Positions 1-32,304 of a stretch of DNA of 64,000 nt are shown piece after piece (the first letter of the stretch is position 1; each line of letters begins with the position of its first letter). The DNA lies in the NCBI RefSeq assembly GCF_021295335.1, contig NZ_JAIWOT010000001.1, positions 2,937,501-3,001,500 of the forward strand, read 5' to 3'. This stretch comes from Komagataeibacter sp. FNDCF1 (lineage in GTDB: Bacteria > Pseudomonadota > Alphaproteobacteria > Acetobacterales > Acetobacteraceae). The position numbers were made by a program, and so were the translations under genes. The notes beneath the pieces were generated by a model. That model was given only the letters and a program-made list of their open reading frames with translations, ran no database searches and was not told where the DNA came from.

Positions 1-2567
<2,567 letters not shown>

Positions 2568-15484: not shown

Positions 15485-15958
15485 CTCCTGCTAGGGCAGA
15501 GCAATTAACAATTGATTATTCCAGCCGCTTATTTTTATCGGAATTGCCGGGTTCATGCGGGTTGCAGGCCGTATGCTGTACCGGATCATCATAAAACGGA
15601 CCGCCAGTCCCGGGCCTGCTCCACCGTTCCTCCCCATGCCGGTTTCCCGCGCGTGTGTCGGGTCCGGGTCGCTTCCTGTCCGCAGGCTTCTGGCCAGCCC
15701 CGGATGCGCCGGTGAGGACGGAGGGCATGTCATGCCTCCGGAAACCGGCCTGGGAACCGGGGGTATGGAGTGGAACGGGAGGAGACGGATATATCAGGGT
15801 CACGATATTATCGACCGTAATGGATATGTGGTGACGTATGGGCTGCGGGGCAGGCGATGCCGGTCGTTTCTCGCAATGCTGTGTCCGGACGTGCCCTCCC
15901 ATTCAGAGCGCAGGTGGCGGATAGTAGGGGCCACACGCGGCAGGGAAGGAAGGATCGG
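15485..15958. other. divergent intergenic region, promoter zone of the glycosyltransferase operon
   Basis: No gene is supported here. The first about 60 nt are AT-rich (TTAACAATTGATTATT around 15508) and probably hold the promoter of the minus-strand glycosyltransferase operon. The rest is GC-rich and has plus-strand open frames that run into the methyltransferase in another frame without any recognisable product. Confidence 0.45.
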
Positions 15959-17308
15959 GTGGCCACGCTGGAATGGGAGGGCAAGCGCGCCATTGCCGCC
16001 TGTCTCGAGCGCATGGTGGCGGGCACGCTGCGGGTTGATCCCGCCCTGTCCCGTGGCACGGCGCAGAGGGGGAGTCAGGTCATCCATGGTGACAACCTCG
16101 CGGCCCTGCTGGCGTTGCCGCGGGCGCATGCGGGGCGGGTGGACATGGCGCTGCTCGACCCGCCCTACAATACCGGCCGGCGGGACTGGCTGTATGATGA
16201 CAGCGCCAGCATGCCCGTCTGGCCGCACGGGCTGGAAGCCGCCATGGGCCCTGCTGCACGCGCGCTTTCACGTCAGGACAGGTGGCTGTGCCTCATGTAT
16301 CCGCGCCTGATCGTGCTGCGCCGCCTGCTGGCGGAAAATGGCGTGATCGCCTGCTGCATTGATGACCGGGAATATCCCCGCCTGCGCCTGCTGATGGAGG
16401 AAGTATTTGGCGCGGCCAACTTCCTGGCCACCTTTGTATGGGTGAACGCGGGCAACATGGATAACCACAGCCGCATCAAGACCAATCATGAATATGTGGT
16501 GGTCTTTGCACGCGATGCGAAGCGCTTCGTGCCCGGCAGTGTCCTGGCCCCGCAGGTGGGGATGGACAGCAAGCTGCGGCAGCCCTTCATCCGGAATACC
16601 ATTGTCAAGAACGGACCGCGCAATCCCGTGTCCAACCTGGTGCTGCCCGCGGGTTTTCCTGCCTGTTTCGATTCAGGCGAGATCGCGCCTCCCAAAAGTG
16701 AGAAATTCTGGCCACGGTTCACGGCGCCGGTCGTGGTACGCGACGGCCGTCTGCTCCGGCCCGTGACCCTGCGCAGCGGGTGGAGTTCGCGCAGGCAGTG
16801 CATGGCCTTCATTGCCGGTGGCTTCCGTGACATTGCCGACCGGCGCGGGCTGGCCACCCGTTTCTACCTGACCCGCAGCGGGGCCGTATTCATGGAAAAG
16901 GACCGCGCCGGGCAGGCAAGCCATGTCCTGACCGTGCTGCAGGGCATGGGCACGGTGCAGCAGGCGGCGGCGGAACTGGCGCTGCACGGGGTGCGCTTTG
17001 ATTATCCCAAGCCGCTGTCCCTGATCACCTACCTGCTGCGCGCGCTGTGCCCGCGGCCCGATGCGCTGGTGCTGGATGCGTTTGGCGGTTCAGGCACCAC
17101 GGGGCAGGCGGTGATGGACCTCAATGCGGCGGATGGCGGTACGCGGCGCTTCATCATGGTGGAAAGGGATGAACACATCGCCACGACGGTCATCCAGCCC
17201 CGGCTTGCGCGGGTGCTGGCCGGACATGGCCAGCCACCGGGGGCCGGGTTTCATTTCTGCCGGCTGGTCATGCCCCGGCAGGCCGGTTGCCTCCAGCCCG
17301 TGCCATAA
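15959..17308 (+). CDS. orphan site-specific DNA methyltransferase (adenine-N6, type III Mod-like)
   Basis: A beta-class DNA amino-methyltransferase of 449 residues. The catalytic motif comes first (ALLDPPYNTGRRDWLYDD, DPPY at residues 67-70), and the SAM-binding motif comes late (VLDAFGGSGTTGQAVMDLN, about residue 382), the order expected of the beta class. The GTG at 15959 is chosen because GGAAGGAAGGA lies 6 nt upstream and the N-terminus LEWEGKRA then matches the usual start of Mod-type enzymes; the ATG at 15857 would add 34 unrelated residues. At 449 residues it is shorter than classical Mod proteins. No restriction subunit lies beside it, so it is an orphan methylase that may mark DNA for regulation or come from a lost system. 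The target sequence is unknown. Confidence 0.88.
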   Translation: MATLEWEGKRAIAACLERMVAGTLRVDPALSRGTAQRGSQVIHGDNLAALLALPRAHAGRVDMALLDPPYNTGRRDWLYDDSASMPVWPHGLEAAMGPAARALSRQDRWLCLMYPRLIVLRRLLAENGVIACCIDDREYPRLRLLMEEVFGAANFLATFVWVNAGNMDNHSRIKTNHEYVVVFARDAKRFVPGSVLAPQVGMDSKLRQPFIRNTIVKNGPRNPVSNLVLPAGFPACFDSGEIAPPKSEKFWPRFTAPVVVRDGRLLRPVTLRSGWSSRRQCMAFIAGGFRDIADRRGLATRFYLTRSGAVFMEKDRAGQASHVLTVLQGMGTVQQAAAELALHGVRFDYPKPLSLITYLLRALCPRPDALVLDAFGGSGTTGQAVMDLNAADGGTRRFIMVERDEHIATTVIQPRLARVLAGHGQPPGAGFHFCRLVMPRQAGCLQPVP

Positions 17309-17523
17309 CCGCAGGCCCGGGGCTGCCACGGCGGGCCGTCCGTTATTGTGCATGAAAAGGGGGGAGCGGGCGGGCGTGGTGAAATTGACCTGCCTCTGTT
17401 AGAATGCGGGCACGAAAACGGCCCGGCAGGCAGGGAAGGGGAACCGCCCGTCGCGCCGGGCATTGCGATCAGGGACGCGATGGCGCGCGAAAGGCGGCGC
17501 GTGCAGGCAGGGAGAACCGGCAC

Positions 17524-21019: not shown

Positions 21020-21048
21020 TACGGCCTTCCCCGATAATGGCATGACAG

Positions 21049-22697: not shown

Positions 22698-23957
22698 TCA
22701 CTGAGCAAGGGCGGGCTGTGGGCGGGATTGTGGCTGCGACCGGGTCCAGGCCCCGGCTGCCTGCCGCCGGAACCGCCCCGAAAGGCGGCGCGCGGCAAAT
22801 CGTGCGCCCCATGCAAAGCGCAGCAGGGGACCAAAGCTGCCTGCCGCCAGCGGCCCGATGAAATGGAGCCCCGGCACGCTTGATTCAAAGTTGCGCGACA
22901 GCGCGGGCATGTTGTCTTCCGTACGGATGCTGGCTACCAGCGCCCGATCCAGGAACGGGATGCGCGCAAGGTCAATGTGTACTCCCGTGCCCAGGAAGAC
23001 ATGGTCCACATCCATTTCCCGCATCGTGCCCTGTTCGGTATCGGCGAATTCCAGATGGATGGCCTGCCCGCGCATGCTGGCGCGCCGCAGGTCCAGGTTG
23101 AGGCAGATGGGCACCTTGTTGTCGCGCACGACCTGTCCCGTCACCCAGCCCGCGGCGGGCCCCAGATGCCCGCGTGTTATGCGCAGGCGCAGGCGCGCGG
23201 GCAGCATGTGGAAGACATCGGGCAGGTCACTGGCCATGCGGGAGCGCCAGCCCGTGCCCAGTCCGGACCGGGGCTTCTTGATGCGGGTCAGCAGCAGCTT
23301 GAGCAGCGGTATCTTGCGCGGGGGGTGATTGATCCAGATCTTGGGCCGACGGGTGCAGATAACAGGCTCGGCTCCCGCTTCATGCAGGAAACTGGCCGTA
23401 TCCACCGCCGAGGACCCCGCCCCGATCACCGCAACGCGCTGGCCCGCGAAGCGTGCGAAATCGGTCTGGGCAAATGTATGGCTGACCCGTTCGGGGGGCA
23501 GCGTGCGCACCGGGGGCGGGACGTTGGCGAAATCACCGATCCCGATCGCCATGACCACATTGCGTGCCACGACGCTTTTTCCGTTTTCCAGACGCAGGAT
23601 AAATCCGTCCTGCGTGCGTGACAGGTGCGTCACGTTGTGCGGCTGGAGGTGGGGCACGTGGGTTTTCTGGAATTCCTCGCCATATTCGGTAAAGACCCGG
23701 GCGGGGATGGGCACCCCGGTCGGGGCGTAGGGATGGCCCCGTTCCGCGCAGAATTGCCGGAGGGTGGACTGCCGCTTCGGATCGAACAGGTCGAGGGCGA
23801 AGCCTTCCGCCTTGAGGCACAGTTTACTGGGCACATGATCGCGCCAGAAGGCCATCGGTCGCCCGAAAATACGAAAGTCCACCCCCCTGTCGCGCAGATG
23901 GGCAGCCAGCGAAAGACCATAGGGGCCGGCCCCTATAATGGCTATGTCGGTATTCAT
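22698..23957 (-). CDS. FAD-dependent oxidoreductase / N-hydroxylating monooxygenase-like
   Basis: A 419-residue flavoprotein of the two-dinucleotide-binding type. The FAD motif is IAIIGAGPYGLSLAAHL at the N-terminus, and the NAD(P)H motif is VAVIGAGSSAVDTASFL near residue 170. Between them FGRPMAFWRDHVPSKLCLKA resembles the lysine/ornithine N-hydroxylase and flavin monooxygenase group. A C-terminal PGLHFIGPLAAGSFGPLLRF completes the FAD site. It is the first gene of a two-gene minus-strand unit with the ATP-grasp ligase. Hydroxylation of an amine or oxidation of a small metabolite is likely. A long AT-rich leader precedes it. Confidence 0.82.
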   Translation of the reverse strand: MNTDIAIIGAGPYGLSLAAHLRDRGVDFRIFGRPMAFWRDHVPSKLCLKAEGFALDLFDPKRQSTLRQFCAERGHPYAPTGVPIPARVFTEYGEEFQKTHVPHLQPHNVTHLSRTQDGFILRLENGKSVVARNVVMAIGIGDFANVPPPVRTLPPERVSHTFAQTDFARFAGQRVAVIGAGSSAVDTASFLHEAGAEPVICTRRPKIWINHPPRKIPLLKLLLTRIKKPRSGLGTGWRSRMASDLPDVFHMLPARLRLRITRGHLGPAAGWVTGQVVRDNKVPICLNLDLRRASMRGQAIHLEFADTEQGTMREMDVDHVFLGTGVHIDLARIPFLDRALVASIRTEDNMPALSRNFESSVPGLHFIGPLAAGSFGPLLRFAWGARFAARRLSGRFRRQAAGAWTRSQPQSRPQPALAQ

Positions 23958-25033
23958 TGGAAATCCACCAGCCTGCAGTCCGAAGACTGATCTTTATTTA
24001 TAAATCGGGAAAAGTTGCGTATATTTATTTAGATTTCTAACGAAACCTGTACATGTTTCTTGCTCCATGCCAATCGGGAATTGCGGGAACAGGCAGGCGG
24101 ATGCATGACCCTGCCACATGTTAACCATACATTTACCCTTTACCGGACAACAATCACAAAAAAAATAGTCAGGGTATTGCAGGCAGCGTCTTGCAAAAAT
24201 CACACACTCGGGACCGTATTCTTTGGAAGAAAGTAAAATTCATACCCCTATGTTTGATTAATATAACGAGAGCAGGGAACTTTTCTGCTGATTGCATATT
24301 TCGCGCGTAGCACGCCATGGTTGCGCTGGCCTGTTCTTTAGGAAACCGTTTTCATACTAATATGTTTATTTTAAGTGAGGGTATATTTTCAAAGTATTTC
24401 ATGAATTGTATTTTTGGGTTTGATATTGGTTTCATACAAAATCTATATTTCATTCATGCATTCCATCATGTACCATCCAGATGAAGTCATGGCATGCGGT
24501 AATACAGGACCGGTCTTGTACAGCTGTCCGTCTGTTTCATGACTGTCAGGAACAGAGACCTGTGCATGTCAGGTCAAAAAAATGAAAAATGACCATTATG
24601 GTTCTTGTAAGTATATTATAAGTAGTTAATTTTATTTTCAAATATTTTTACAGGTATTGAATTGCATGGACGCACGGTATCAGGCAGCCGTGACGGCGCT
24701 GCCATCATATGTTCGCTAATTGAACCCTGACGATATGACGCCGACCCGTCCCGTAATGGTACAAATCAGGTGATCCATGGTACAGGAATGGCATGTGCCA
24801 CATTAGGTATCGGCATGGGTCAATCTGCTCCCTGCGCTGTCTATATAATGACACGCAGGCGTGCGTGCCTTGGACAGGGCCGTGCCTTGCGGTCAGTACG
24901 TGCGGCGAAGGCGGCAGCGGGACGGTCATCCTGTCCTTAATGGTGAAGGGGCCGAGAACGGAACCTGTGAACTGCCCGCATGTGGCTGGTACTTTCGTGC
25001 CCTCCCAGTGCGTGCGGAGCAGGAAACACTGGC
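23958..25033. other. about 1.1 kb AT-rich intergenic region without a recognised gene
   Basis: From 23990 to 24720 the sequence is strikingly AT-rich with stops in all frames. It contains the leader of the minus-strand oxidoreductase gene and otherwise nothing I can name. From 24720 to the IS left end at 25037 the base composition returns to the genome norm, but there is no recognisable product; a minus-strand frame across 24705-25862 is antisense to the IS transposase and was discarded. The region probably marks the left part of an acquired segment. Confidence 0.5.
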
Positions 25034-25036
25034 TAA

Positions 25037-25966
25037 GAGCCCGATCCGAAAGTTTTTGAACAATACCAGCCTGTTGTGATTCATCCGTCTTTGCAGAGAG
25101 ATGGAGTGAATGGTGACATGGACTGGTATTGCCCGGCGCGAGTATAGCCGGGAAAGATTGCGATATCCATCGGACATGACGGACGGGGAGTGGACTTTGA
25201 TCATGCCATTTGTGCCCCCGGCGAAACGGGGCGGTCGTCCGCGCACGACGGATATGCGCGAGGTGGTCAATGCGATGCTCTACATAGCCTCGGCCGGGTG
25301 TGCGTGGCGTCTGCTGCCGAAATGCTTTCCGCCGGTCTCGACCATCAGGCGCTATTTTTACGCCTGGCGTGATGCCGGAGTGTTCGAGGTCATGAATACG
25401 GTGCTGGTCATGAGCCTGCGCGAGATCGAGGGACGTGACGCCTCTCCGAGCGCGGGCGTGATTGACAGCCAGTCGGTGAAAACCACGGAAAGCGGCGGGA
25501 TTTCGGGCTATGACGCGGGGAAGAAGGTCAAGGGCCGCAAGCGCCATATCGTGACGGATACCTGCGGCTTCCTGATCTTTCTCCTCGTTCATGCCGCTGA
25601 TATCCAGGACCGTGATGGGGCCGTTGATGTTCTGGCAGCGATACGCAGGCGCTTTCCCTGGCTGCGCCACATCTTCGCTGATGGCGGCTATGCTGGCGAC
25701 AAATTGCGATCCGCGCTCGCCTCCATGGGAAAATGGACCCTCGAAATCATCAGGCGGTCCGATACGGTGAAGGGTTTTCAGATCCTGCCGCGTCGCTGGG
25801 TGGTGGAACGGACATTCGCATGGCTGGGACGATGCAGGCGGCTCGCCAAAGATTGGGAACAATCCATTGCTTCCTCAACCGCATGGACATTGATCGCCTC
25901 AATCCGAATGCTCACACGACGGACAGCAAGGCATTGTCAGGGTTGAAAAACTTTCGGATCGGGCTC
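25037..25966 (+). mobile_element. IS1031-like insertion sequence (IS5 family), complete
   Basis: A 930-bp element with matched ends: GAGCCCGATCCGAAAGTTTT at the left, and its reverse complement ending GGATCGGGCTC at the right. It is flanked by TAA on both sides (25034-25036 and 25967-25969), the 3-bp TNA target duplication of the IS1031 group. The length equals that known for IS1031. It carries one intact transposase. Intact ends, target repeats and ORF suggest a recent insertion. Confidence 0.95.
25110..25946 (+). CDS. IS1031-like transposase (IS5 family DDE)
   Basis: A 278-residue single-ORF transposase that cuts and joins the IS ends. The N-terminal part has the family start MTDGEWTLIMPFVPPAKRGG. 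The DDE residues lie in SAGVIDSQSVKTTESGG (first Asp), RHIFADGGYAGDKLRSA (second Asp) and RWVVERTFAWLGRCRRLAKD (Glu with the YREK-like end). The frame is complete, with no frameshift needed, as expected of the IS1031 group. It ends 20 nt before the right inverted repeat edge. Confidence 0.95.
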   Translation: MVTWTGIARREYSRERLRYPSDMTDGEWTLIMPFVPPAKRGGRPRTTDMREVVNAMLYIASAGCAWRLLPKCFPPVSTIRRYFYAWRDAGVFEVMNTVLVMSLREIEGRDASPSAGVIDSQSVKTTESGGISGYDAGKKVKGRKRHIVTDTCGFLIFLLVHAADIQDRDGAVDVLAAIRRRFPWLRHIFADGGYAGDKLRSALASMGKWTLEIIRRSDTVKGFQILPRRWVVERTFAWLGRCRRLAKDWEQSIASSTAWTLIASIRMLTRRTARHCQG

Positions 25967-25969
25967 TAA

Positions 25970-26439
25970 GACTGCAGCCGTTCCCTGCGAGGTTCGTGAG
26001 GCTGACTCGATGCCCTCACCTCGGACGCTTCTCTTGCCGGAAATGCACGACGCGCGGGCCTGCATCCGCTGGACCCGTTCTGGACCTGCCGGGGCATGCT
26101 GGCAAAAAGGCATGTCCGAAAAGGAAATTGTCGCTGCGTTCTTTGCCCTGCCAGCCGCGATAAAACAGCACCTGCGTCTCATGACCGTATTCGACAGCCT
26201 GCCTGGGGTTTACGGACAGGACGGCATGCGGCTGATGGCGTTTTCCGTAAGTGATGATTATGCCCGACGGGGAGCGGGAGAACCGGCGTAATCTTTCGCC
26301 CTTCGCGCTTTTTGATAAAAGGACTGGCATCTTAAGCCCTGTCGGCGTTGGGGCTCGGGGCGCGACTTTGTCCAGAAAGAGTCCGCGTTTATGATATCAG
26401 CCCGCTGTCCGGCTGCCCGGCTGCCAGGGACCGGGCAGC
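25970..26439. other. flank of the IS without a recognised gene
   Basis: A plus-strand frame at 26010-26291 (93 codons, MPSPRTLLLPEMHDARACIR and onward) and an antisense frame over the same bases have no recognised family and no ribosome-binding site that stands out. The segment EIVAAFFALPAAIKQH is faintly like an IS30-type transposase piece, too weak to call. The stretch is best read as decayed mobile DNA. Confidence 0.4.
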
Positions 26440-26640
26440 AGCCTTTCCTGCACTATCAACGATAACGCGGATCTTTATGGTCAGTCTGCCCCTGGACCGT
26501 TCGATGGCCTGATTTGTACCCTTTTTTTGCGGGCTTCCGCACGATGCCGATGATTACGGACAATCGTGCTGTCGACCATCCTGTATTCAGTGTCGTGATC
26601 AGCAGCTGAGGGTAGAAAAACCGTTCCATCACGTCATTTC
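26440..26640 (-). pseudogene. fragment of an IS5-family (IS427-like) transposase, frameshifted
   Basis: On the minus strand one frame reads DTEYRMVDSTIVRNHRHRAE, containing the first catalytic Asp region (MVDSTIV). After a shift at the A-run near 26529 the next frame reads KKGTNQAIERSRGRLTIKIR then VIVDS, the typical continuation in this family. Both ends are missing. It differs from the intact IS427-like element at 28372, so it is an older relic. The A-run may be the old programmed frameshift site. Confidence 0.75.
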
Positions 26641-26970
26641 GCACCATTAGTGTAATCGCTGGTATACGTTCTTCCTGGTACCCTACCGGGCAGGCAGGTC
26701 ACGCCGGAAAATACCTGCATGGTAACGATACGGAACGGCTTCAATAAACAGGCCATTACCTGAAGTTGTGATACCGACATGACTTTCACGTCTGGGGAGA
26801 AGGCCCTTTATTTTCTTCTATTGTCTGGCATGCAGACCATACTGCCGCATACGCATCTTTCCTAAAAATCAGGGAAAACATCATAGTACATGCACAGGTA
26901 CAGGTCACTATTACGATATGCATTAATTTAAAAACGCTTTTTCATGTTTTATAACATAAGTTAGGTAAAA

Positions 26971-27774
26971 TTAAAATACAACTTCTAATTTTACTGATGA
27001 CTGGGTTATTTTGTTAATTTCTTTTTCCTGATTATATTTCATAGAAAGCCATGTGGGCACTTTCATTTCAAAAACAATATCCATATCTTTTTTAATTTCC
27101 AGTAACGTATTTATTTCAAAATTTGAACTTTCTGCTTTATTATTTTTGTTTTTTCTTATATTAAAAATATTGATCATTAAAGGATCATTACTTAATCCAG
27201 ATTGATATAGGTATTCTTCAGATTTTTTCAGGTCTGCTTCACTGGAAGAAAATCGTTGTTCTATTTTTATTAATTCAGCATATTTGAGATATTTCTCTTT
27301 TTTTCTTGATACAGCCAGTTCCGCTGGAATTTGTGGGACAGAACCTGGAAAGCTGAATTCTGCGTTATGACCATCGATTGCCACTTGTACACTCACAGTA
27401 GAGACGGATTTTGCACCAAGAAGGCTGCATAAATTAGAAAAATTTGTTAATTTCGACAGGCTTACATTTTCCGCTACTCGATCAATAAGCTCATAAGTAG
27501 ACGGAATAAATGGGTTTGCAATTAGTCTATTCCCTGGAGTATAAATATTTTTACAAATCAAATTCTTCAAACTGGAGGATAATGGAGAAACGGGATTTGC
27601 ATTGTAACGCAGAAAAGTAGTTTGGTTGGAAGTTACTAAAAACTTTCCTTCTCCATTACTGATAGCTTTTTCAACGTCGTCATCAGTGAGAATAACAATA
27701 GAGTGCCTGTCATTGATATTGTCAGGAAGGTCGTCGACGAGGATGGGGTTTTTATTCATTGTATATTCTTTCAT
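26971..27774 (-). CDS. unknown soluble protein, fourth gene of the small-GTPase operon
   Basis: A 267-residue protein with no signal peptide or membrane helix from the chosen start. I do not recognise its family. It has an acidic N-terminus (ILVDDLPDNINDRHSIVILT), a central region of mixed character and a charged helix about residues 150-190 (SRKKEKYLKYAELIKIEQRF). The start at 27774 overlaps the stop of the upstream gene as ATGA with GGTGAA before it; a longer frame to 27819 would read through the membrane tail of that gene in another frame and is unlikely, while ATG 27759 is possible. It is very AT-rich, unlike the chromosome around it, which points to acquisition. As the last gene of the operon it could be the effector or a partner of the GTPase. 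Confidence 0.72.
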   Translation of the reverse strand: MKEYTMNKNPILVDDLPDNINDRHSIVILTDDDVEKAISNGEGKFLVTSNQTTFLRYNANPVSPLSSSLKNLICKNIYTPGNRLIANPFIPSTYELIDRVAENVSLSKLTNFSNLCSLLGAKSVSTVSVQVAIDGHNAEFSFPGSVPQIPAELAVSRKKEKYLKYAELIKIEQRFSSSEADLKKSEEYLYQSGLSNDPLMINIFNIRKNKNNKAESSNFEINTLLEIKKDMDIVFEMKVPTWLSMKYNQEKEINKITQSSVKLEVVF

Positions 27775-28247
27775 TTCACCATAAAGTAATAAGAGAAAAA
27801 AGATATAAATGAAAAACAAAATATACCAGCAATGAAAATCGTTGCATAACTTGATCTTTTAGAAAATAACATAACGCTTTCAGCGTCAACATTTCTTTTT
27901 ATATATTTTGCAAATTTTGTTACTTCATATTTTATTGAATTTAATTTTTCCGCTGACGCATTAAAATCACTTTTTTCACAAAAAACTATAAACGTATCTC
28001 TGGATAATATGTCTTTTTCTGCGCAAGGCAGTTCAAATATAAACCCATTTCCTTTTGATTCTATAAGCTTTGTCCCATTATGCACGGTAGTTTTTGTAGA
28101 ATTTTTCGAAATTAATGATAATATAGACGCAGCCTCTTGCCTTTCTTCCTGGTTTTCTGCTGCCAGAAAGTTTCCATTTAAAGTCATTGGATTAGGCGAA
28201 GTGTTATCCAATGATTGCGCATATAAAATTTTAATTCTGGATGTCAT
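27771..28247 (-). CDS. unknown protein with C-terminal membrane anchor, third gene of the small-GTPase operon
   Basis: 158 residues. The first about 110 residues are soluble (MTSRIKILYAQSLDN, later GNGFIFELPCAEKDILSRDT) and would face the cytoplasm. A basic patch follows, and the protein ends in one transmembrane helix (ATIFIAGIFCFSFISFFSYY then FMVK), so it is tail-anchored. No family is recognised. Its ATG overlaps the stop of the original GTPase frame (AAAATGA), and its own stop overlaps the next gene (ATGA), so the three genes were translationally coupled. The IS inserted 124 bp upstream may now cut it off from the operon promoter. Confidence 0.75.
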   Translation of the reverse strand: MTSRIKILYAQSLDNTSPNPMTLNGNFLAAENQEERQEAASILSLISKNSTKTTVHNGTKLIESKGNGFIFELPCAEKDILSRDTFIVFCEKSDFNASAEKLNSIKYEVTKFAKYIKRNVDAESVMLFSKRSSYATIFIAGIFCFSFISFFSYYFMVK

Positions 28248-28369
28248 TTTAGCATCTCCGTTAGAATTTCTTGAGCGCCATCATTATCTTGAAGACTTCC
28301 TATTAAAATTCGAGGTCTTGGCATCCCATCCAAATAACATAAGGCCCGCGTAATGCTTAATGTATGCGT
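28244..28369 (-). pseudogene. C-terminal fragment of the IS-interrupted small GTPase
   Basis: These 126 nt encode the last 41 residues and stop of the GTPase: THTLSITRALCYLDGMPRPR then ILIGSLQDNDGAQEILTEML. The segment ILIGSL is at the place of the G5 base-recognition loop, and the final helix fits a Ras-like fold. It joins in frame to codon 171 of the N-terminal part when the IS and one TA copy are removed. The stop TGA overlaps the next gene start. On its own the fragment has no start and is not expressed as a protein. Confidence 0.85.
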
Positions 28370-29183
28370 TAGGTTTCGTGGACAAAGGGTATCCACTGGA
28401 GTGCTGACACGAGACTGACGAAGCCAAGATATGATTCCTTGGTTTTGTCATATCGGGTGGCAACGCGTCGCCAGTTCTTGAGTTTGTTGAACAGGCGCTC
28501 GACGAGATTGCGCCAGCGATATTTGGTTTTATCATGAGGTACAGGATTGCGACGGTTGCTTTTGCTCGGGATGACGGCTTCGATTTCGGCCTTGGCAAGT
28601 TCCTCGCGAATGAGGTCGGCATCGTAACCTTTGTCTGCCAGTAACGCCTCGATCTTGTCAGCGATCATGCGGAACAGCGGGCCGAAACCCTGAATATCGT
28701 GGGTCTGTCCCGGCGTCAGGACAAAACCGAGAGGGCGTCCCCTGGCGTCGCATCGGGCGTGCAGTTTGGTGGTGAAACCACCGCGCGATCGGCCAAGCGC
28801 CTCGGTTTCCTGTGTCCCTTTTTTATACCGATAGCACAATGATGTGCCCGGACCACCGTGCTGTCGATCATGTCGGCAGTGGTATCCCGCTCGACCATTT
28901 CAGCCAAGGTTTCGAGCATCGCATCGAACACGCCTGTCGTCACCCATCGTCGGTAGCGTCGGAACACGCTGTTCCACTTGCCATAATCATCAGGCAGGTG
29001 GCGCCACTGCGATCCGGTTCGGGCAATCCACATCATGCCTTCGAAATACAGACGATTGTCTTGCGCAGGACGGCAGCCACGACCCCTCTCAGGCGGAAGC
29101 AGCGCCCCGATGATGGCCCATTCCTCGTCCGAAAGCCCAATTCGCTCGCCCAACAACGCCTCCAAAAGGCAGCTTTGAATCAA
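28369..29183 (-). CDS. IS427-like transposase made by -1 frameshifting (OrfA 28716-29183, OrfB 28369-28839)
   Basis: A DDE transposase split over two frames. OrfA (29183 to 28716) has the N-terminal domain GLSDEEWAIIGALLPPERGR and the first Asp in DMIDSTVVRAHHCAIGIKKG. OrfB (28839 to 28369) continues TQETEALGRSRGGFTTKLHA, the second Asp in ALLADKGYDADLIREEL, and the Glu in WRNLVERLFNKLKNWRRVAT. A slip at A AAA AAG (28824-28818) joins them in the right register, giving a full-length protein of about 271 residues. Without the slip OrfA ends in an unrelated 36-residue tail. All catalytic parts are present, so the element may be active. Confidence 0.9.
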
Positions 29184-29219
29184 TCATGGACGTTACTGTC
29201 AACCTTTGTCCACGAAACC
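28372..29219 (-). mobile_element. IS427-like insertion sequence (IS5 family), complete, inside the GTPase gene
   Basis: An 848-bp element. The left end reads GGTTTCGTGGACAAAGG and the right end is the reverse complement, CCTTTGTCCACGAAACC. It is flanked by TA on each side (28370-28371 and 29220-29221), the 2-bp duplication seen in the IS427 group. It carries a two-frame transposase read from the minus strand. The interrupted host gene is otherwise undamaged, so insertion is recent. The last transposase codon ends at the IS edge and the stop codon TAA is formed by the TA duplication plus the next host base. Confidence 0.93.
28818..28824 (-). promoter_or_regulatory. programmed -1 ribosomal frameshift site of the transposase
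   Basis: The minus strand reads GGT ATA AAA AAG in the OrfA frame, so the heptamer A AAA AAG lies in exactly the phase needed for tandem -1 slippage. This is the most efficient slippery heptamer known in E. coli. The -1 frame continues directly into the conserved OrfB sequence. No structure downstream was assessed. Confidence 0.85.
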
Positions 29220-29732
29220 TAATTGATCTTGGTAAGAAATTTTTTTATGTAAATCATATTCTGAGTCGCAATCACAATGGGTTCCGATAAGTAATATTTT
29301 TTCGGGTTTCTTCTTTCTTCTATCCAATATGTCAGAAATAAAAGACATATCTGATTCCATACGATTGCAGGCACGCTCATCGTTGTGCATTATTTCGTCA
29401 GCACGAAACAGGTAAACAATCCAGTTAGCGGTCTCACAGCTTTCTTTCCAGTCATTATAAAAAGCCTTGTCTCCGGGAACATCGACACTCTCTTTGAAAT
29501 CATAAAGCTTATCTTGAATTTTTCGTGGAAAACTTTTTTGTTTTTCTGTAAGTGCCGTTTGGCTGTTATTTGTTGGAACGGAATTAGATTGAATAAAATG
29601 AAGAAGAGTTGTCTTTCCTGTTCCGCGTTCCCCCAAAACGCACAATTTTATATGATCGAATTTATAGCCAAAAATTTGTATTAAAGAGAAATTCCAAGCC
29701 AATTTTTCAAGAGCAGATAAATCATCTGTCAT
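29220..29732 (-). pseudogene. Ras-like small GTPase, N-terminal 171 codons (interrupted by IS)
   Basis: This part has four of the five G motifs of a P-loop GTPase: Walker A GERGTGKT at residues 34-41, DVPG at 84-87 as G3, and LIGTHCD ending at 154 as G4 (T-x-x-D in place of N/T-K-x-D); G2 is not clear, and G5 lies in the detached C-terminal fragment. A hydrophobic strand (WIVYLFRAD) follows G3 as in Ras. With the fragment at 28244-28369 the original protein had 212 residues, the size of a small GTPase without large extra domains. At present the frame runs 7 codons into the IS and stops, so a protein lacking G5 and the last helix could be made. Low GC and lack of lipid signals suggest it acts in the cytoplasm with the membrane-bound partner proteins. 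Confidence 0.85.
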
Positions 29733-29777
29733 ATGCGGAACCTTTTATGTTTATTTAATACTAAAAATAAATAATAT

Positions 29778-30026
29778 TTATTCATCATCATTAAACTTTT
29801 TTATAGCATAAATGCATGCACCAGATAACAAAGAGGCTGCGATTATACCTGTTGTATTTTTTCTCTTATCTGCGTCTGCATTAAAAACAATTTTTTCTTT
29901 TTCTATTTCTGATTTCAACACATTTTCTTTGTTTTTGCTTCGGTAATCAAGGAAGAGTTTTGAACCTTCTGTTAATGTTTTAGTTACAGTCAGGGCTATA
30001 GCAGATATTAATTTTGGATTTGCCAT
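29778..30026 (-). CDS. small membrane protein, first gene of the small-GTPase operon
   Basis: 82 residues. The N-terminal 55 are helical and charged (LTEGSKLFLDYRSKNKENVL then KSEIEKEKIVFNADADKR), likely a coiled coil. A single membrane helix follows (TGIIAASLLSGACIYAI) and a short acidic tail KKFNDDE. AAGG lies about 9 nt before the ATG. It is 45 nt upstream of the GTPase start on the same strand and equally AT-rich, so it belongs to the same unit. No family is recognised. It may anchor the GTPase or its partner at the inner membrane. Confidence 0.65.
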   Translation of the reverse strand: MANPKLISAIALTVTKTLTEGSKLFLDYRSKNKENVLKSEIEKEKIVFNADADKRKNTTGIIAASLLSGACIYAIKKFNDDE

Positions 30027-30408
30027 TCCTAAGAACCTTAAAAATCAAGATGGATGATGATATACTACATCAAGATATGGCTTCCTGCCATCGATACCAG
30101 TATGCCATGATACACTTCATCCGGTGTACGTCTACCCAGCGTTGTATACGGATGCGTTGTCCGCTGTAATGAGCGATCCTCTTTGTCAGAGACTGGAGAT
30201 AATTCACCATGGGCAGTAATATAGCATGCCGGGCCTGAACCCGGCCATCAATGGCTGACACTTTTGCCGATTGTCGCGGCAGTCCGACCTGTGAACGGTC
30301 TCGGGTCTGTCGGAGCTTAAAACTCTCGGAAGATGAGGCCTGTGGCATGAAAGAAGAAAATATCACATCATGAGTGCAGGTACAGGTCTTACCTGCACCA
30401 TGCGCTCA
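30027..30408. other. upstream region of the GTPase operon, no gene recognised
   Basis: The first about 50 nt are AT-rich and should hold the promoter of the GTPase operon. Beyond that composition rises, and a minus-strand frame at 30070-30366 (98 codons) shows no family motif or good ribosome-binding site. It probably is part of the decayed integrase region. Confidence 0.4.
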
Positions 30409-30640
30409 CTGACGGCACGCCATAAGAGCAGATAACGCGGCCATGGCAGCTTTCTGCTGCTTTTCTGTCAGTGACGGATCTTGCTTTGTGCGGAGATCGC
30501 TTCGGGCACTATTATGATATTTCCGGCTTCGGCAACGGCAACCTCGGGATATGCTCCGAAGGCTAAAACCCGTGCCTTGCACCCAAGCGGTATTGGACCG
30601 GCCGCAGTTTCGCGGCATTGGGCTTCATCGGCGGATATAG
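30409..30640 (-). pseudogene. remnant of a P4-type tyrosine integrase next to tRNA-Arg
   Basis: Three frames on the minus strand join into the N-terminal arm-binding domain of P4-like integrases. First AAKLRPVQYRLG, then KARVLAFGAYPEVAVAEAG, then RKYHNSARSDLRTKQDPS followed by LTEKQQKAA. Intact relatives read in the same order: a YRxGGK segment, LALGxYPEVSLxEAR, then a stretch ending DPSxxKKxxKAA. The catalytic domain is absent. Its place about 260 nt from the 3' end of a tRNA gene, reading away from it, is where island integrases lie. Ends are approximate. Confidence 0.75.
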
Positions 30641-30898
30641 AGCACCAGGATCAACGGTTTCCATCGCCTTATTCTATTACGGCGTCGGGTGAATTGCAGT
30701 GTTTGCGAGCCTTTTGAACGCCCCGGCAAGATTTCACCGTAACGCGACAGATATTCCCACGTGCCGAATCAGTTTCTTCGCCGGTACCCCATGCGCCGGG
30801 CTGGAGGATCCGGTGGAACAGGCCGGGGTCCGCAACATCATGGAAATGGCAGCTGACTGTCATTCCCAGGACTGATTCGACCTGTTTGGAATATATGT

Positions 30899-31208
30899 TG
30901 GTGTCCGCGGCGGGATTCGAACCCACGGCCCCAGGATTCATACCACTTCGGCTTTCACCGCCGCCATGCAGGCATGGCGTTCGTGGTCTGGACTGTCCCT
31001 TCACCATGGGCCGCAAGCGGCCTGCAGGTGCTGCCCATCCAGTCTCTACACCTTGCCGGTCGTCTGACCGGCCTTGGCTCGGGATTGGCACGGCAACGTA
31101 TTGCCAGAGCGTTCCCCGAATTTGAGCAGATCCGCCACGTGGTTTCCCGTCGTGACGCCCAATTGAAAACCAGGAATCCTGTGCTCTATCCGGCTGAGCT
31201 ACGCGGAC
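30899..31208 (-). tRNA. tRNA-Arg(CCU) split by a group I intron
   Basis: The exons are 31172-31208 and 30899-30938. Joined, they make a 77-nt cloverleaf: acceptor GTCCGCG with CGCGGAC, D-stem GCTC with GAGC, anticodon stem CAGGA with TCCTG, loop TTCCTAA (anticodon CCT), T-stem GTGGG with CCCGC, discriminator A and encoded CCA. The intron lies between anticodon position 36 and position 37. tRNA-Arg(CCU) is a known home of group I introns in alphaproteobacteria such as Agrobacterium. The 3' end points to the genomic island. Confidence 0.95.
30939..31171 (-). ncRNA. group I (IC3-type) self-splicing intron in tRNA-Arg(CCU)
   Basis: A 233-nt intron without an ORF. The conserved core segments occur in order on the minus strand: P (AAATTCGGGGAACG), Q (CAATCCCGAGCCAAGG), R (GTGTAGAGACTGGATGG) and S (AAGGGACAGTCCAGA), close to those of the cyanobacterial tRNA-Leu intron. 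The 5' exon ends in U, and CCU plus GG can pair with UUGGG just inside the intron to form P1 with the needed U-G pair at the splice site. The last intron base is G. It should excise itself using guanosine. Confidence 0.92.
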
Positions 31209-31284
31209 ACACCCGGATTGTGTAACCGAGCCTACGCCCAACGGCAAGGGTGTTTCCCCAGGGGGTAGGGGAATATTTCGCCCG

Positions 31285-32304
31285 TCAGGACCGCCTGTGC
31301 GCCAGTTGTGCCTGCGCGCACAGACGGGCGACATGGCGCAGGGCCAGTACGATATCGGGGCTGCCGGTCTGTTTGCACGCCAGTTCCAGGGCCTGTGTTT
31401 CCGTGGCCGCGCGCAGCAGGGCCGGTGCCGACCATGCCGCCAGCGCCCGTTCGAAGCTGTCCGTACGCTTGAAAAATACCGGTGGCCGCAACTGCCGCAT
31501 GGCTTCGGCCCGGCTCATGCCGCCATCCACCGCAAGTCGTGCCCGGCGCAACCGGTGAATATGCGACAGCAGGGCGCGGGTCAGGGTCACGGGGCTGCTG
31601 CCATCGACCATCAGCGCGCGCTGGGCTGCGGCATCGGCTTCCCTGCGCTGGCCCGCCATGGCGGCAAAGGCCGCATCTTCCATCGAGACACCGGCGGCAT
31701 CCCCCACGCAGGCCCGCACATCGTCCAGTCCCAGCCGTCCGCCGCTGCCCACAAACAGGGCAAGCTTTTCCACCTCGCTGCGGGTCGCGGCCCGGTCGGG
31801 CCCGGCCCGTTCAACCATCCAGCCCAGGGCATCGGGGTCTATGCCCACGTTCTGTGCCGCCAGCATCTGGCGGATCGCCCCCTCCAGCGCGCGGCCTTCT
31901 TCCGGATAGCAGCCGATCAGGGCGCATTGTGCATCCTTTTCCGCAAAGCCACGCAGTTTTGAGCGGGAATCAAGGGCGGGTGCTTCCACGACCACCAGCG
32001 CGTCCGAATGCTGCGCAAGGCCGTGCCGGAGCGGTTCAAGCAGGTCATCGGCCCCGTCACGCACCCAGATCACGCGCCTGCCGCCGGACAGGGACAGGGC
32101 GGTCATTTCCTCCTCCAGCCGGGCATGGTCCGCACGCCCCAGCATGGCCACACGAAACGGATCCTGCAGGTCGGAACAGATGGCGTGCGCGGCAATGGTG
32201 GCGCGTTCGCGGATCAGCCCCACATCATCCCCATGCAGCACGATGGCCCGCAGGCTGCCCGGCGCCTGTAGTGTCGTGGTGATATTGCGCGGGCTGACCT
32301 TCAC
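31285..32304 (-). CDS. holA: DNA polymerase III subunit delta
   Basis: The delta subunit of the clamp loader, which opens the beta clamp during replication. 339 residues, the family length. The N-terminus SLRAIVLHGDDVGLIRERAT is the degenerate P-loop region that begins HolA proteins; the middle has VIWVRDGADDLLEPL and the C-terminal domain begins near GVSMEDAAFAAM. The start overlaps the lptE stop as ATGA, as in many Gram-negative genomes in which lptE, holA and leuS travel together. Confidence 0.94.
   Translation of the reverse strand: MKVSPRNITTTLQAPGSLRAIVLHGDDVGLIRERATIAAHAICSDLQDPFRVAMLGRADHARLEEEMTALSLSGGRRVIWVRDGADDLLEPLRHGLAQHSDALVVVEAPALDSRSKLRGFAEKDAQCALIGCYPEEGRALEGAIRQMLAAQNVGIDPDALGWMVERAGPDRAATRSEVEKLALFVGSGGRLGLDDVRACVGDAAGVSMEDAAFAAMAGQRREADAAAQRALMVDGSSPVTLTRALLSHIHRLRRARLAVDGGMSRAEAMRQLRPPVFFKRTDSFERALAAWSAPALLRAATETQALELACKQTGSPDIVLALRHVARLCAQAQLAHRRS

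What the first reader, a model, noticed from the sequence alone, without database searches (positions are those of the whole stretch)
26971..30026. Four-gene AT-rich operon built around a Ras-like small GTPase and two membrane proteins
The operon encodes an 82-residue membrane protein, a small GTPase (212 residues when reconstructed), a 158-residue tail-anchored protein and a 267-residue protein. The last three genes have ATGA overlaps. Apart from the GTPase I recognise none of the families. The base composition is far from the host's and the unit sits among mobile-element relics near a tRNA. Small GTPases with dedicated membrane partners are known from bacterial polarity and conflict systems, so a signalling or defence role is possible. 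That is inference.
Basis: partly seen in the sequence, partly recalled or inferred. Interest (0 to 1): 0.82.

Follow-up and report, generated by a model that had tools for sequence, protein, structure and literature searches.

The report
Conserved membrane GTPase operon, IS-interrupted here
A small Ras-like switch protein, a tail-anchored membrane protein and a third protein of unknown type are encoded together in the same order in very distant bacteria, in some of them near antiviral genes, which points to an unnamed membrane-bound signalling or defence unit whose copy in this genome is broken by a transposon.

Summary
On the minus strand lie an 82-aa single-TM gene, a small-GTPase gene (G), a 158-aa tail-anchored gene (T) and a 267-aa gene (H), with 4-nt G/T and T/H overlaps; GC 0.33 against 0.65 outside. 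An IS5-type element (about 28370-29221) interrupts G.

A DNA-pattern scan of 84,980 species and profile searches found 10 further loci, all G-T-H in the same order, in Bacteroidota, a cyanobacterium, Gemmatimonadota and other lineages. Profiles built without the window find its G, T and H at 1.5e-39, 7.4e-16 and 3e-43. The T and H proteins scanned reach no Pfam, NCBIfam or PADLOC family; the H model has no significant PDB or BFVD fold match. The 82-aa gene was not found elsewhere.

Three of 10 relatives lie near PADLOC-recognised defence genes (one inside a type I R-M operon), a fourth near a NACHT-CHAT protein. My control does not prove enrichment: its first form was not like for like, and the corrected form shows no difference. 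Best reading: a membrane-anchored Ras-like GTPase switch module, plausibly for defence, which is inferred, not shown. The window copy is probably inactive.

The parts
29778..30026 (-). 82-aa single-TM protein, first gene of the AT-rich unit; no relative found
29222..29732 (-). G, N-terminal piece (170 aa) of a Ras-like small GTPase: G1 GERGTGKT, G3 DVPGD, G4 GTHCD; no N-terminal TM, unlike 11 of its 12 relatives
28370..29221 (-). IS5-type insertion sequence inside G (two transposase ORFs, inverted ends GGTTTCGTGGACAAAGG)
28244..28369 (-). G, C-terminal piece (about 42 aa, holds the IGSL G5-like motif)
   Evidence: weak profile match, E 0.0045
27771..28247 (-). T, 158-aa tail-anchored protein with the family's conserved D-x-x-x-R motif
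   Evidence: (model of the L220 member)
26971..27774 (-). H, 267-aa soluble protein of a family without known fold or curated model
   Evidence: (model of the L220 member)
30899..31208 (-). tRNA-Arg(CCT) with a 233-nt intron; its 3' end is the right border of the variable island
23976..30898 (.). strain-specific island (6.9 kb) with other or less content in the three sister genomes compared
25036..25974 (+). IS1031/ISGdi1-like insertion sequence in the island

Best explanation
G-T-H is a horizontally moving three-gene module built on a membrane-anchored Ras-like GTPase switch, about as likely as not a defence or conflict system, which is the single most likely role. SHOWN: the three families occur together in fixed order; G keeps the GTPase motifs, has an N-terminal TM helix in 11 of 13 members and lacks the catalytic Gln in 12 of 13; T has a C-terminal TM helix in 10 of 11; H is soluble and its model resembles no solved structure significantly. 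INFERRED: G and T sit side by side at the inner membrane; T, a compact alpha/beta domain on a tail anchor, regulates or reads G's nucleotide state (the missing Gln suggests that hydrolysis needs help in trans); a trigger, perhaps infection, shifts G to its active state and this releases or recruits H, which acts as sensor or effector. In the window G has no TM of its own and an 82-aa TM protein precedes it, possibly replacing the anchor. The IS cuts G before its G5 motif, so the window copy is probably inactive.
For: Leave-one-out profiles: window G 1.5e-39, T 7.4e-16, H 3e-43 among 923 window ORFs; best of 1000 shuffled T/H sequences 0.055. Same order in 10 of 10 relatives with intact H, with overlaps or short gaps (G/T -11 to 29 nt, T/H -97 to 160 nt). 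Pairwise identities of G, T and H correlate at r 0.88-0.92, Mantel p 0.0002. TM positions and G motifs. Context: L240 inside a type I R-M operon between hsdS and hsdR; L242 about 3 kb from MzaC-D-E; L246 under 1 kb downstream of a type IIG enzyme and a DrmD-like helicase; L245 2 kb from a NACHT-CHAT gene. In Nostoc (L226) a GTPase of this family carries the N-terminal module of a neighbouring NACHT-like protein (BLASTP 5e-16). Patchy distribution by H profile: 2 of 244 (one a fragment), 1 of 249 (68), 2 of 217 (69), 1 of 89 (again in 74 on the same background), 4 of 64 (75), each count including its own centre genome. The window copy sits in a tRNA-bounded variable island.
Against: No functional data. 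Seven of 10 relatives (L241, L243-L245, L250-L252) have no PADLOC match at 1e-40 among their two longest neighbours. The control does not establish enrichment: control loci were 8 kb or less and only complete ORFs up to 1500 aa were taken, while neighbours of G-T-H came from longer stretches. The naive 2 of 10 against 0 of 71 (p 0.014) vanishes when only complete ORFs inside the 8-kb window are allowed: none of the 9 longest that were scanned reaches 1e-40 (the tenth, of L242, was not scanned). Three Gemmatimonadota copies sit among ordinary genes by eye. H and T show no known effector domain. No copy was found in plasmid, phage or viral-contig collections. Two GTPases of the family (L226, L157) lack T and H. 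One T (L194) lacks the TM helix.
Confidence: 0.5

Rival explanations
1. G-T-H is an accessory envelope or polarity signalling module, like MglA/MglB or Rup group 1 neighbourhoods, without a role in conflict; its nearness to defence genes in some loci reflects only that both travel in islands.
For: Small GTPases in prokaryotes are known from polarity, motility, development and similar signalling (PMC4316618, abstract and passages); G is membrane-anchored and T tail-anchored; seven of 10 loci have no PADLOC match in the scan of two neighbours each, and the corrected control shows no enrichment.
Against: Patchy presence, a locus inside a restriction operon and one next to a type IIG enzyme, a Nostoc GTPase that shares its N-terminal module with a NACHT-like protein; by eye no shared signalling output gene next to the operon.
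Confidence: 0.3
2. Addiction-like or selfish module: H (or T) is toxic and the GTPase complex keeps it quiet; the unit is kept for its own sake rather than as defence.
For: Compact genes with overlaps, patchy distribution, PIN/antitoxin-like genes near L243 and L252 (seen by eye, not tested).
Against: Three conserved proteins are more than a toxin-antitoxin pair usually has (recalled); no toxin family match above cut-off.
Confidence: 0.12
3. In this genome the unit is merely decaying cargo: an acquired fragment broken by an IS, with no present function.
For: IS inside G before the G5 motif, with another IS in a replaceable island; no close copy of H in 298 other family genomes sampled (single-sequence query, blind to diverged copies).
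Against: T, H and the 82-aa reading frames are intact. This concerns the window copy only and does not explain the conserved family.
Confidence: 0.6

Closest known systems
Rup family of prokaryotic Ras-like GTPases, group 1 (Wuichet and Sogaard-Andersen 2014, PMC4316618; abstract and passages read)
   Same: Small Ras-superfamily GTPase in bacteria, not coupled to MglB, lacking the catalytic Gln in the G3 motif, with a conserved neighbourhood that includes a membrane protein.
   Different: Group 1 neighbours are a coiled-coil protein, a domain-TM-OmpA protein and a signalling output protein. Here they are a tail-anchored T and a soluble H; no such set was seen by eye in the ORF tables. G4 is GTHxD/GTYxD instead of NKxD (recalled canonical form). 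No tree with Rup sequences was made.
MglA with MglB (roadblock GAP)
   Same: Bacterial Ras-like switch with a cognate partner; MglB (3t1r) appears at rank 33 of the T fold search, E 0.41, not significant.
   Different: T is tail-anchored; no MglB among the 13 weak PDB sequence matches of the T profile (best E 0.0067); H follows T in all 11 loci that have T.
DO-GTPase/GAP1 systems and AP-GTPase conflict systems (Kaur et al. 2020 PMC7159879; PMC8195603; passages read)
   Same: GTPase switch at the centre of predicted conflict operons, often at the membrane; sharing of N-terminal modules between an NTPase and its partners, as in the Nostoc locus.
   Different: Double-GTPase 2 (PF19993) was only a sub-threshold match of one member (E 0.23). 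No GAP1, zinc-ribbon, COR or LRR match above cut-off in the proteins scanned with Pfam (G: window, L220, L223).
Arf-like membrane GTPases with an N-terminal TM anchor (SR-beta; recalled)
   Same: Arf/Ras-like G domain behind an N-terminal membrane helix.
   Different: No SR-beta family among the Pfam matches; its partners were not compared with T or H directly.

Membership tests
Ras superfamily small GTPase | P-loop G domain with G1, G3 and G4 motifs, matched by Ras-family structures | tested here: met
   Profile A9 matches Rab11 1.5e-07 and LRRK2 Roc 6.8e-07. G1 and G4 in 13 of 13, G3 D-x-x-G in 12 of 13; for the 8 members found by pattern, GTHxD was a search condition. Pfam Ras, Roc and Arf hits of the window piece stay just under their cut-offs. 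G4 is GTHxD/GTYxD, not NKxD.
MglA/MglB | Adjacent MglB-type roadblock protein | tested here: not met
   No MglB among the PDB sequence matches of T; fold match to MglB not significant; no such family match for T in Pfam.
Rup group 1 | Neighbourhood of coiled-coil protein, TM-OmpA protein and signalling output protein | tested here: not met
   By eye not in the ORF tables of 11 loci; no Pfam match above cut-off for the T and H proteins scanned. Not every neighbour was scanned.
Rup (unclassified) | Placement in the Rup clade of the GTPase tree | not tested
   No Rup sequences were fetched.
DO-GTPase/GAP1 systems | DO-GTPase domain and a GAP1 protein | tested here: not met
   No Pfam match above cut-off (G of window, L220, L223; T and H of several loci).
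Roco (Roc-COR) | Roc domain followed by COR, usually with LRR | tested here: not met
   The relatives' GTPases have 191-275 aa; no COR or LRR match in the three GTPases scanned.
Known anti-phage system in PADLOC 2.0.0 | Match to a system's protein models | tested here: not met
   T and H: none; G: only weak P-loop matches (best 2.1e-4, PtuA) for the window and worse for the relatives scanned (10 proteins).
Longin/roadblock (profilin-like) fold for T | Significant structural match | tested here: inconclusive
   Model of L220 T, pLDDT 89.6; no Foldseek hit with E <= 0.001; GATOR1, TagF, MglB and PAS chains among the 50 weak hits shown.
Anti-phage defence system (functional) | Reduces phage plating | not testable with these tools
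   Needs an experiment.

The most novel reading that the evidence does not exclude
A previously unnamed bacterial immune module in which a Ras-like GTPase anchored by an N-terminal helix and a tail-anchored longin- or roadblock-like partner form a membrane switch that controls H, a protein of a new fold: a prokaryotic counterpart of eukaryotic membrane GTPase platforms such as Rag-Ragulator, used in defence.
Probability: 0.2. Interest if true: 0.9.

Novelty: new variant of a known kind. Interest (0 to 1): 0.63.

Why it matters
Small Ras-like GTPases were found in only 17% of prokaryote genomes in a 2014 survey (PMC4316618, abstract), and few of their pathways are known. A conserved operon with two partner families that the libraries scanned here do not hold, and a GTPase that lacks the catalytic glutamine in nearly all members, would add a new kind of bacterial membrane switch. 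Copies inside a restriction operon and near NACHT genes make it directly testable whether Ras-like switches serve in prokaryotic immunity.

Tried and rejected
Single-protein searches with the window proteins found no relative: plasmids, phages, viral contigs, the first genome-contig scan, 398 phylum genomes. Searches used single window sequences and would miss copies as diverged as the relatives found later. tblastn of the window GTPase in plasmids at E up to 5 gave only weak, partial matches. A tighter pattern gave 3 viral stretches; none is in the profile hit list, which scanned all loci. Relatives came from the pattern W[KN]-x10-Y-[hydrophobic]2-x(about 40)-GTHxD in genome contigs: of 79 stretches, 14 have the translated motif in frame without a stop; 8 of these have a P-loop and are true relatives, 6 are chance. 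Alignments A1, A5 and A6 in viral contigs gave nothing.

Second GTPase subfamily in a small-genome family member (L004): GTPase related (98% hhalign probability), but its TM partner does not align with T, so it is not counted. L005 (E 0.005) looks like chance (an in-frame stop in the match). L238, a 51-aa match to the C-terminal end of H in a cyanobacterium, has no G or T hit; not counted.

Control that failed: I first counted 2 of 10 against 0 of 71 (p 0.014). On checking it is not like for like: controls took only complete ORFs in loci of 8 kb or less and dropped one ORF of 1648 aa (L171), while hsdR, hsdM, MzaE, the IIG enzyme and the NACHT-CHAT gene are not complete inside the matching 8-kb windows. 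With equal windows no difference remains by that measure. A second, post-hoc look (tblastn of the ten defence-type neighbour proteins: 0 of 71 control loci, 3 of 10 trimmed G-T-H loci) is circular, because the queries come from those loci; it only says that these genes are not common in the control set. One search used 10 neighbour proteins that I chose because they looked defence-like. Control loci are chance-motif loci and include several Flavobacterium records.

Considered and dropped: MglB-type partner, DO-GTPase/GAP1 and Roco (not met), phage or plasmid module (no match), pore-forming H (no structural support). The idea that the 82-aa protein replaces the missing TM anchor is untested. 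Rfam at gathering thresholds found nothing in 23500-32000, so the class of the tRNA intron is open. Searches list the same 88 background genomes: one sample, not two. Literature: seven searches on this operon or its kind and one on the tRNA intron (138); no paper on this operon stood out in the rows listed, which for some searches were a part of all hits. Papers seen: PMC7159879 and PMC8195603 as passages, PMC4316618 as passages and outline with abstract; the rest as listings.
Full report
Observation. Four AT-rich genes lie on the minus strand between 30026 and 26971: an 82-aa single-TM protein, a small GTPase (G), a 158-aa protein with a C-terminal TM helix (T) and a 267-aa soluble protein (H). 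G/T and T/H each overlap by 4 nt. GC without the insertion sequence is 0.325 against 0.646 outside the island. The GTPase gene is interrupted by an IS5-type element at about 28370-29221: transposase domains, an 852-bp match to copies on a Komagataeibacter saccharivorans plasmid (83%) and sphingomonad plasmids. The N-terminal piece has 170 native residues with G1, G3 and G4; the C-terminal piece has about 42 residues with a G5-like IGSL.

Setting. With introns allowed, ARAGORN finds a tRNA-Arg(CCT) with a 233-nt intron at 30899-31208 (-); the default run missed it. The same sequence is present at 89-90% identity in three sister genomes. Against them the window has a private stretch from about 23976 to 30898: sister L253 holds 1.0 kb there, L255 7.9 kb and L254 9.2 kb (for L254 counted from the last shared point at 21023) of other sequence. 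Sister homology resumes at 30899 (L254), 30902 (L255) and 30806 (L253). This is the pattern of an island at a tRNA 3' end. The other IS of the island has copies of 94-99.6% on plasmids of Kozakia, Gluconacetobacter and Komagataeibacter, so the host is probably an acetic acid bacterium (inference).

Finding relatives. Standard searches with the window proteins failed. I designed a DNA pattern from the GTPase, keeping a Trp also shared with a distant GTPase. In genome contigs it gave 79 stretches. In 14 the translated motif is in frame, and 8 of these have an in-frame P-loop. Six of the 8 have T and H directly downstream: L187/L240 Desulfuromonadaceae, L194/L241 Candidatus Binatia, L205/L242 Lutibacter flavus, L211/L243 Gemmatimonadota, L220/L244 Kofleriaceae, L223/L245 Roseofilum. 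Two have not: L226 Nostoc and L157, a MAG titled Helicobacter cetorum; no H match was found in either genome. An H profile then found four more intact loci: L246 and L247-L249, all again with G and T upstream. So the 10 relatives with intact H, and the window, all show G-T-H in one order on one strand. A 51-aa H-like fragment (L238) was not counted.

Is the homology real? Profiles built without the window sequence, searched against all 923 six-frame window ORFs of 40 aa or more, hit G (1.5e-39), T (7.4e-16) and H (3e-43). The best of 500 shuffled T and 500 shuffled H sequences reached 0.055. Identities between members are low (median 0.32, 0.24 and 0.29 for G, T and H), yet the pairwise identities of the three genes correlate strongly (r 0.88-0.92, Mantel p 0.0002). 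The operon has been inherited as a unit.

How common? By H profile: 2 of 244 genomes (one a fragment), 1 of 249, 2 of 217, 1 of 89 (and again on the same 88 background genomes), 4 of 64. Each count includes the centre genome that was already positive. In the host's family and phylum only single-sequence searches were run (1 of 299 for H; G in 1 of 398), which see close copies only. Within these limits it is rare and patchy. No match was found in plasmid or phage collections (16, 57, 131), and no relative was confirmed by five viral-contig relative scans or seen among the pattern-scan loci examined (36, 89).

What the proteins are. G: Ras-superfamily profile matches (Rab11 1.5e-07, LRRK2 Roc 6.8e-07). 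G1 is present in all 13; G3 is D-x-x-G in 12 (Q-x-x-G in L248), followed by a residue other than Gln in 12 (L205 has Gln); G4 is GTHxD in 11 and GTYCD in 2, where for 8 members GTHxD was a condition of the search. A TM helix opens 11 of 13 members; the window protein and the Nostoc one lack it. T: a C-terminal TM helix in 10 of 11 (not L194); D77 and R81 (L220 numbering) invariant. The AlphaFold model of the L220 member (pLDDT 89.6) is beta-beta-alpha-beta4-alpha plus a long C-terminal helix. Foldseek gave no significant match; weak hits include GATOR1, TagF, MglB and PAS chains. That the order of elements resembles a longin or roadblock domain is a lead from memory, not a result. H: no TM helix; the model of the L220 member is mixed alpha/beta (pLDDT 78.8, pTM 0.79) without a significant PDB or BFVD match; its invariant residues look mostly structural. 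The T and H proteins scanned match no curated family above its cut-off (Pfam, NCBIfam, PADLOC; PHROGs for the window only).

Neighbourhood. L240 lies inside a type I restriction operon: hsdM, hsdS, G, T, H, a Schlafen-AlbA protein, hsdR, on one strand. L246 follows a DrmD-like helicase and a type IIG enzyme; L242 is about 3 kb from MzaC-D-E. L245 is 2 kb from a NACHT-CHAT gene. Among the two longest neighbours of each of the 10 loci, PADLOC matches at 1e-40 occur in 3 loci (L240, L242, L246). My control, the longest complete ORF of 71 chance-motif loci, gave 0 of 71. The apparent contrast (2 of 10 by longest ORF, p 0.014) is not sound: the G-T-H neighbours came from longer stretches. Restricted to complete ORFs in equal 8-kb windows, none of the 9 longest neighbours that had been scanned reaches the threshold, so enrichment is not established. 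The individual cases stand; a rate does not. In Nostoc the GTPase begins with the same module as a neighbouring NACHT-like protein (BLASTP 5e-16), the kind of sharing that Kaur and colleagues describe in predicted conflict systems (PMC7159879 and PMC8195603, passages); that this protein is a NACHT is judged by eye.

Mechanism. I hold most likely a membrane switch. G is anchored by its own helix (in the window perhaps by the 82-aa protein, untested) and T by its tail; T controls or reads the nucleotide state of G, for which a partner in trans would be expected because the catalytic Gln is missing; H is the third, soluble component that senses or acts. Anchors, motifs, gene order and co-inheritance are shown; interactions, trigger and output are inferred. 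Defence is favoured over polarity or envelope signalling by the patchy distribution, the restriction-operon and NACHT cases and the island setting, but most loci lack recognised defence neighbours and the control is uninformative, so I put it at even odds. The window copy itself is probably inactive because the IS separates G5 and the last helix from the rest.

Comparison. It works like other Ras-type switches, but it is not MglA/MglB, Rup group 1 by neighbourhood, DO-GTPase/GAP1 or Roco, each of which fails a defining feature tested here; membership in the wider Rup clade was not tested. I rate it a new variant of a known kind: a GTPase-centred operon with two partner families that the libraries scanned do not hold.

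Noticed in passing
window 30899-31208 (-): tRNA-Arg(CCT) with a 233-nt intron, the sequence conserved in three sister genomes; found only with introns allowed; no Rfam gathering match, so the intron class is open.
   Followed up: partly
window 15857-17308 (+): 483-aa protein with a DNA-methylase-like DPPYNTG motif (by eye) in a stretch (15595-17457) where sister L253 has only about 0.36 kb: a second strain-specific insertion.
   Followed up: no
L004:1147-2028 (-) and 274-1143 (-): Related GTPase subfamily in a small-genome family member with a different TM partner and an upstream WYL-like regulator (recalled); GTPase related at 98% hhalign probability, partner not alignable with T.
   Followed up: partly
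L226:2185-3012 (-): Nostoc GTPase of this family whose N-terminal NTGGGNYNE module is shared with a neighbouring NACHT-like protein and, more weakly, a 111-aa protein.
   Followed up: partly
L157:7323-7898: GTPase of the family in a MAG titled Helicobacter cetorum; no H match in that genome.
   Followed up: partly
L238 (G867:C24:116025-116177): 51-aa C-terminal H-like fragment in a cyanobacterium, with no G or T hit in the 3.2 kb held.
   Followed up: no
L254:3541-12761 and L255:5479-13382: The same tRNA-Arg site holds other genes in sisters (a penicillin-binding-protein-like gene and a large protein in L254; PAS-domain proteins and a resolvase in L255; named by eye), so it looks like an insertion hotspot.
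   Followed up: partly
L240:7078-8742 (-): A Schlafen AlbA_2 / HATPase_c_4 protein sits between H and hsdR in the type I restriction operon.
   Followed up: no
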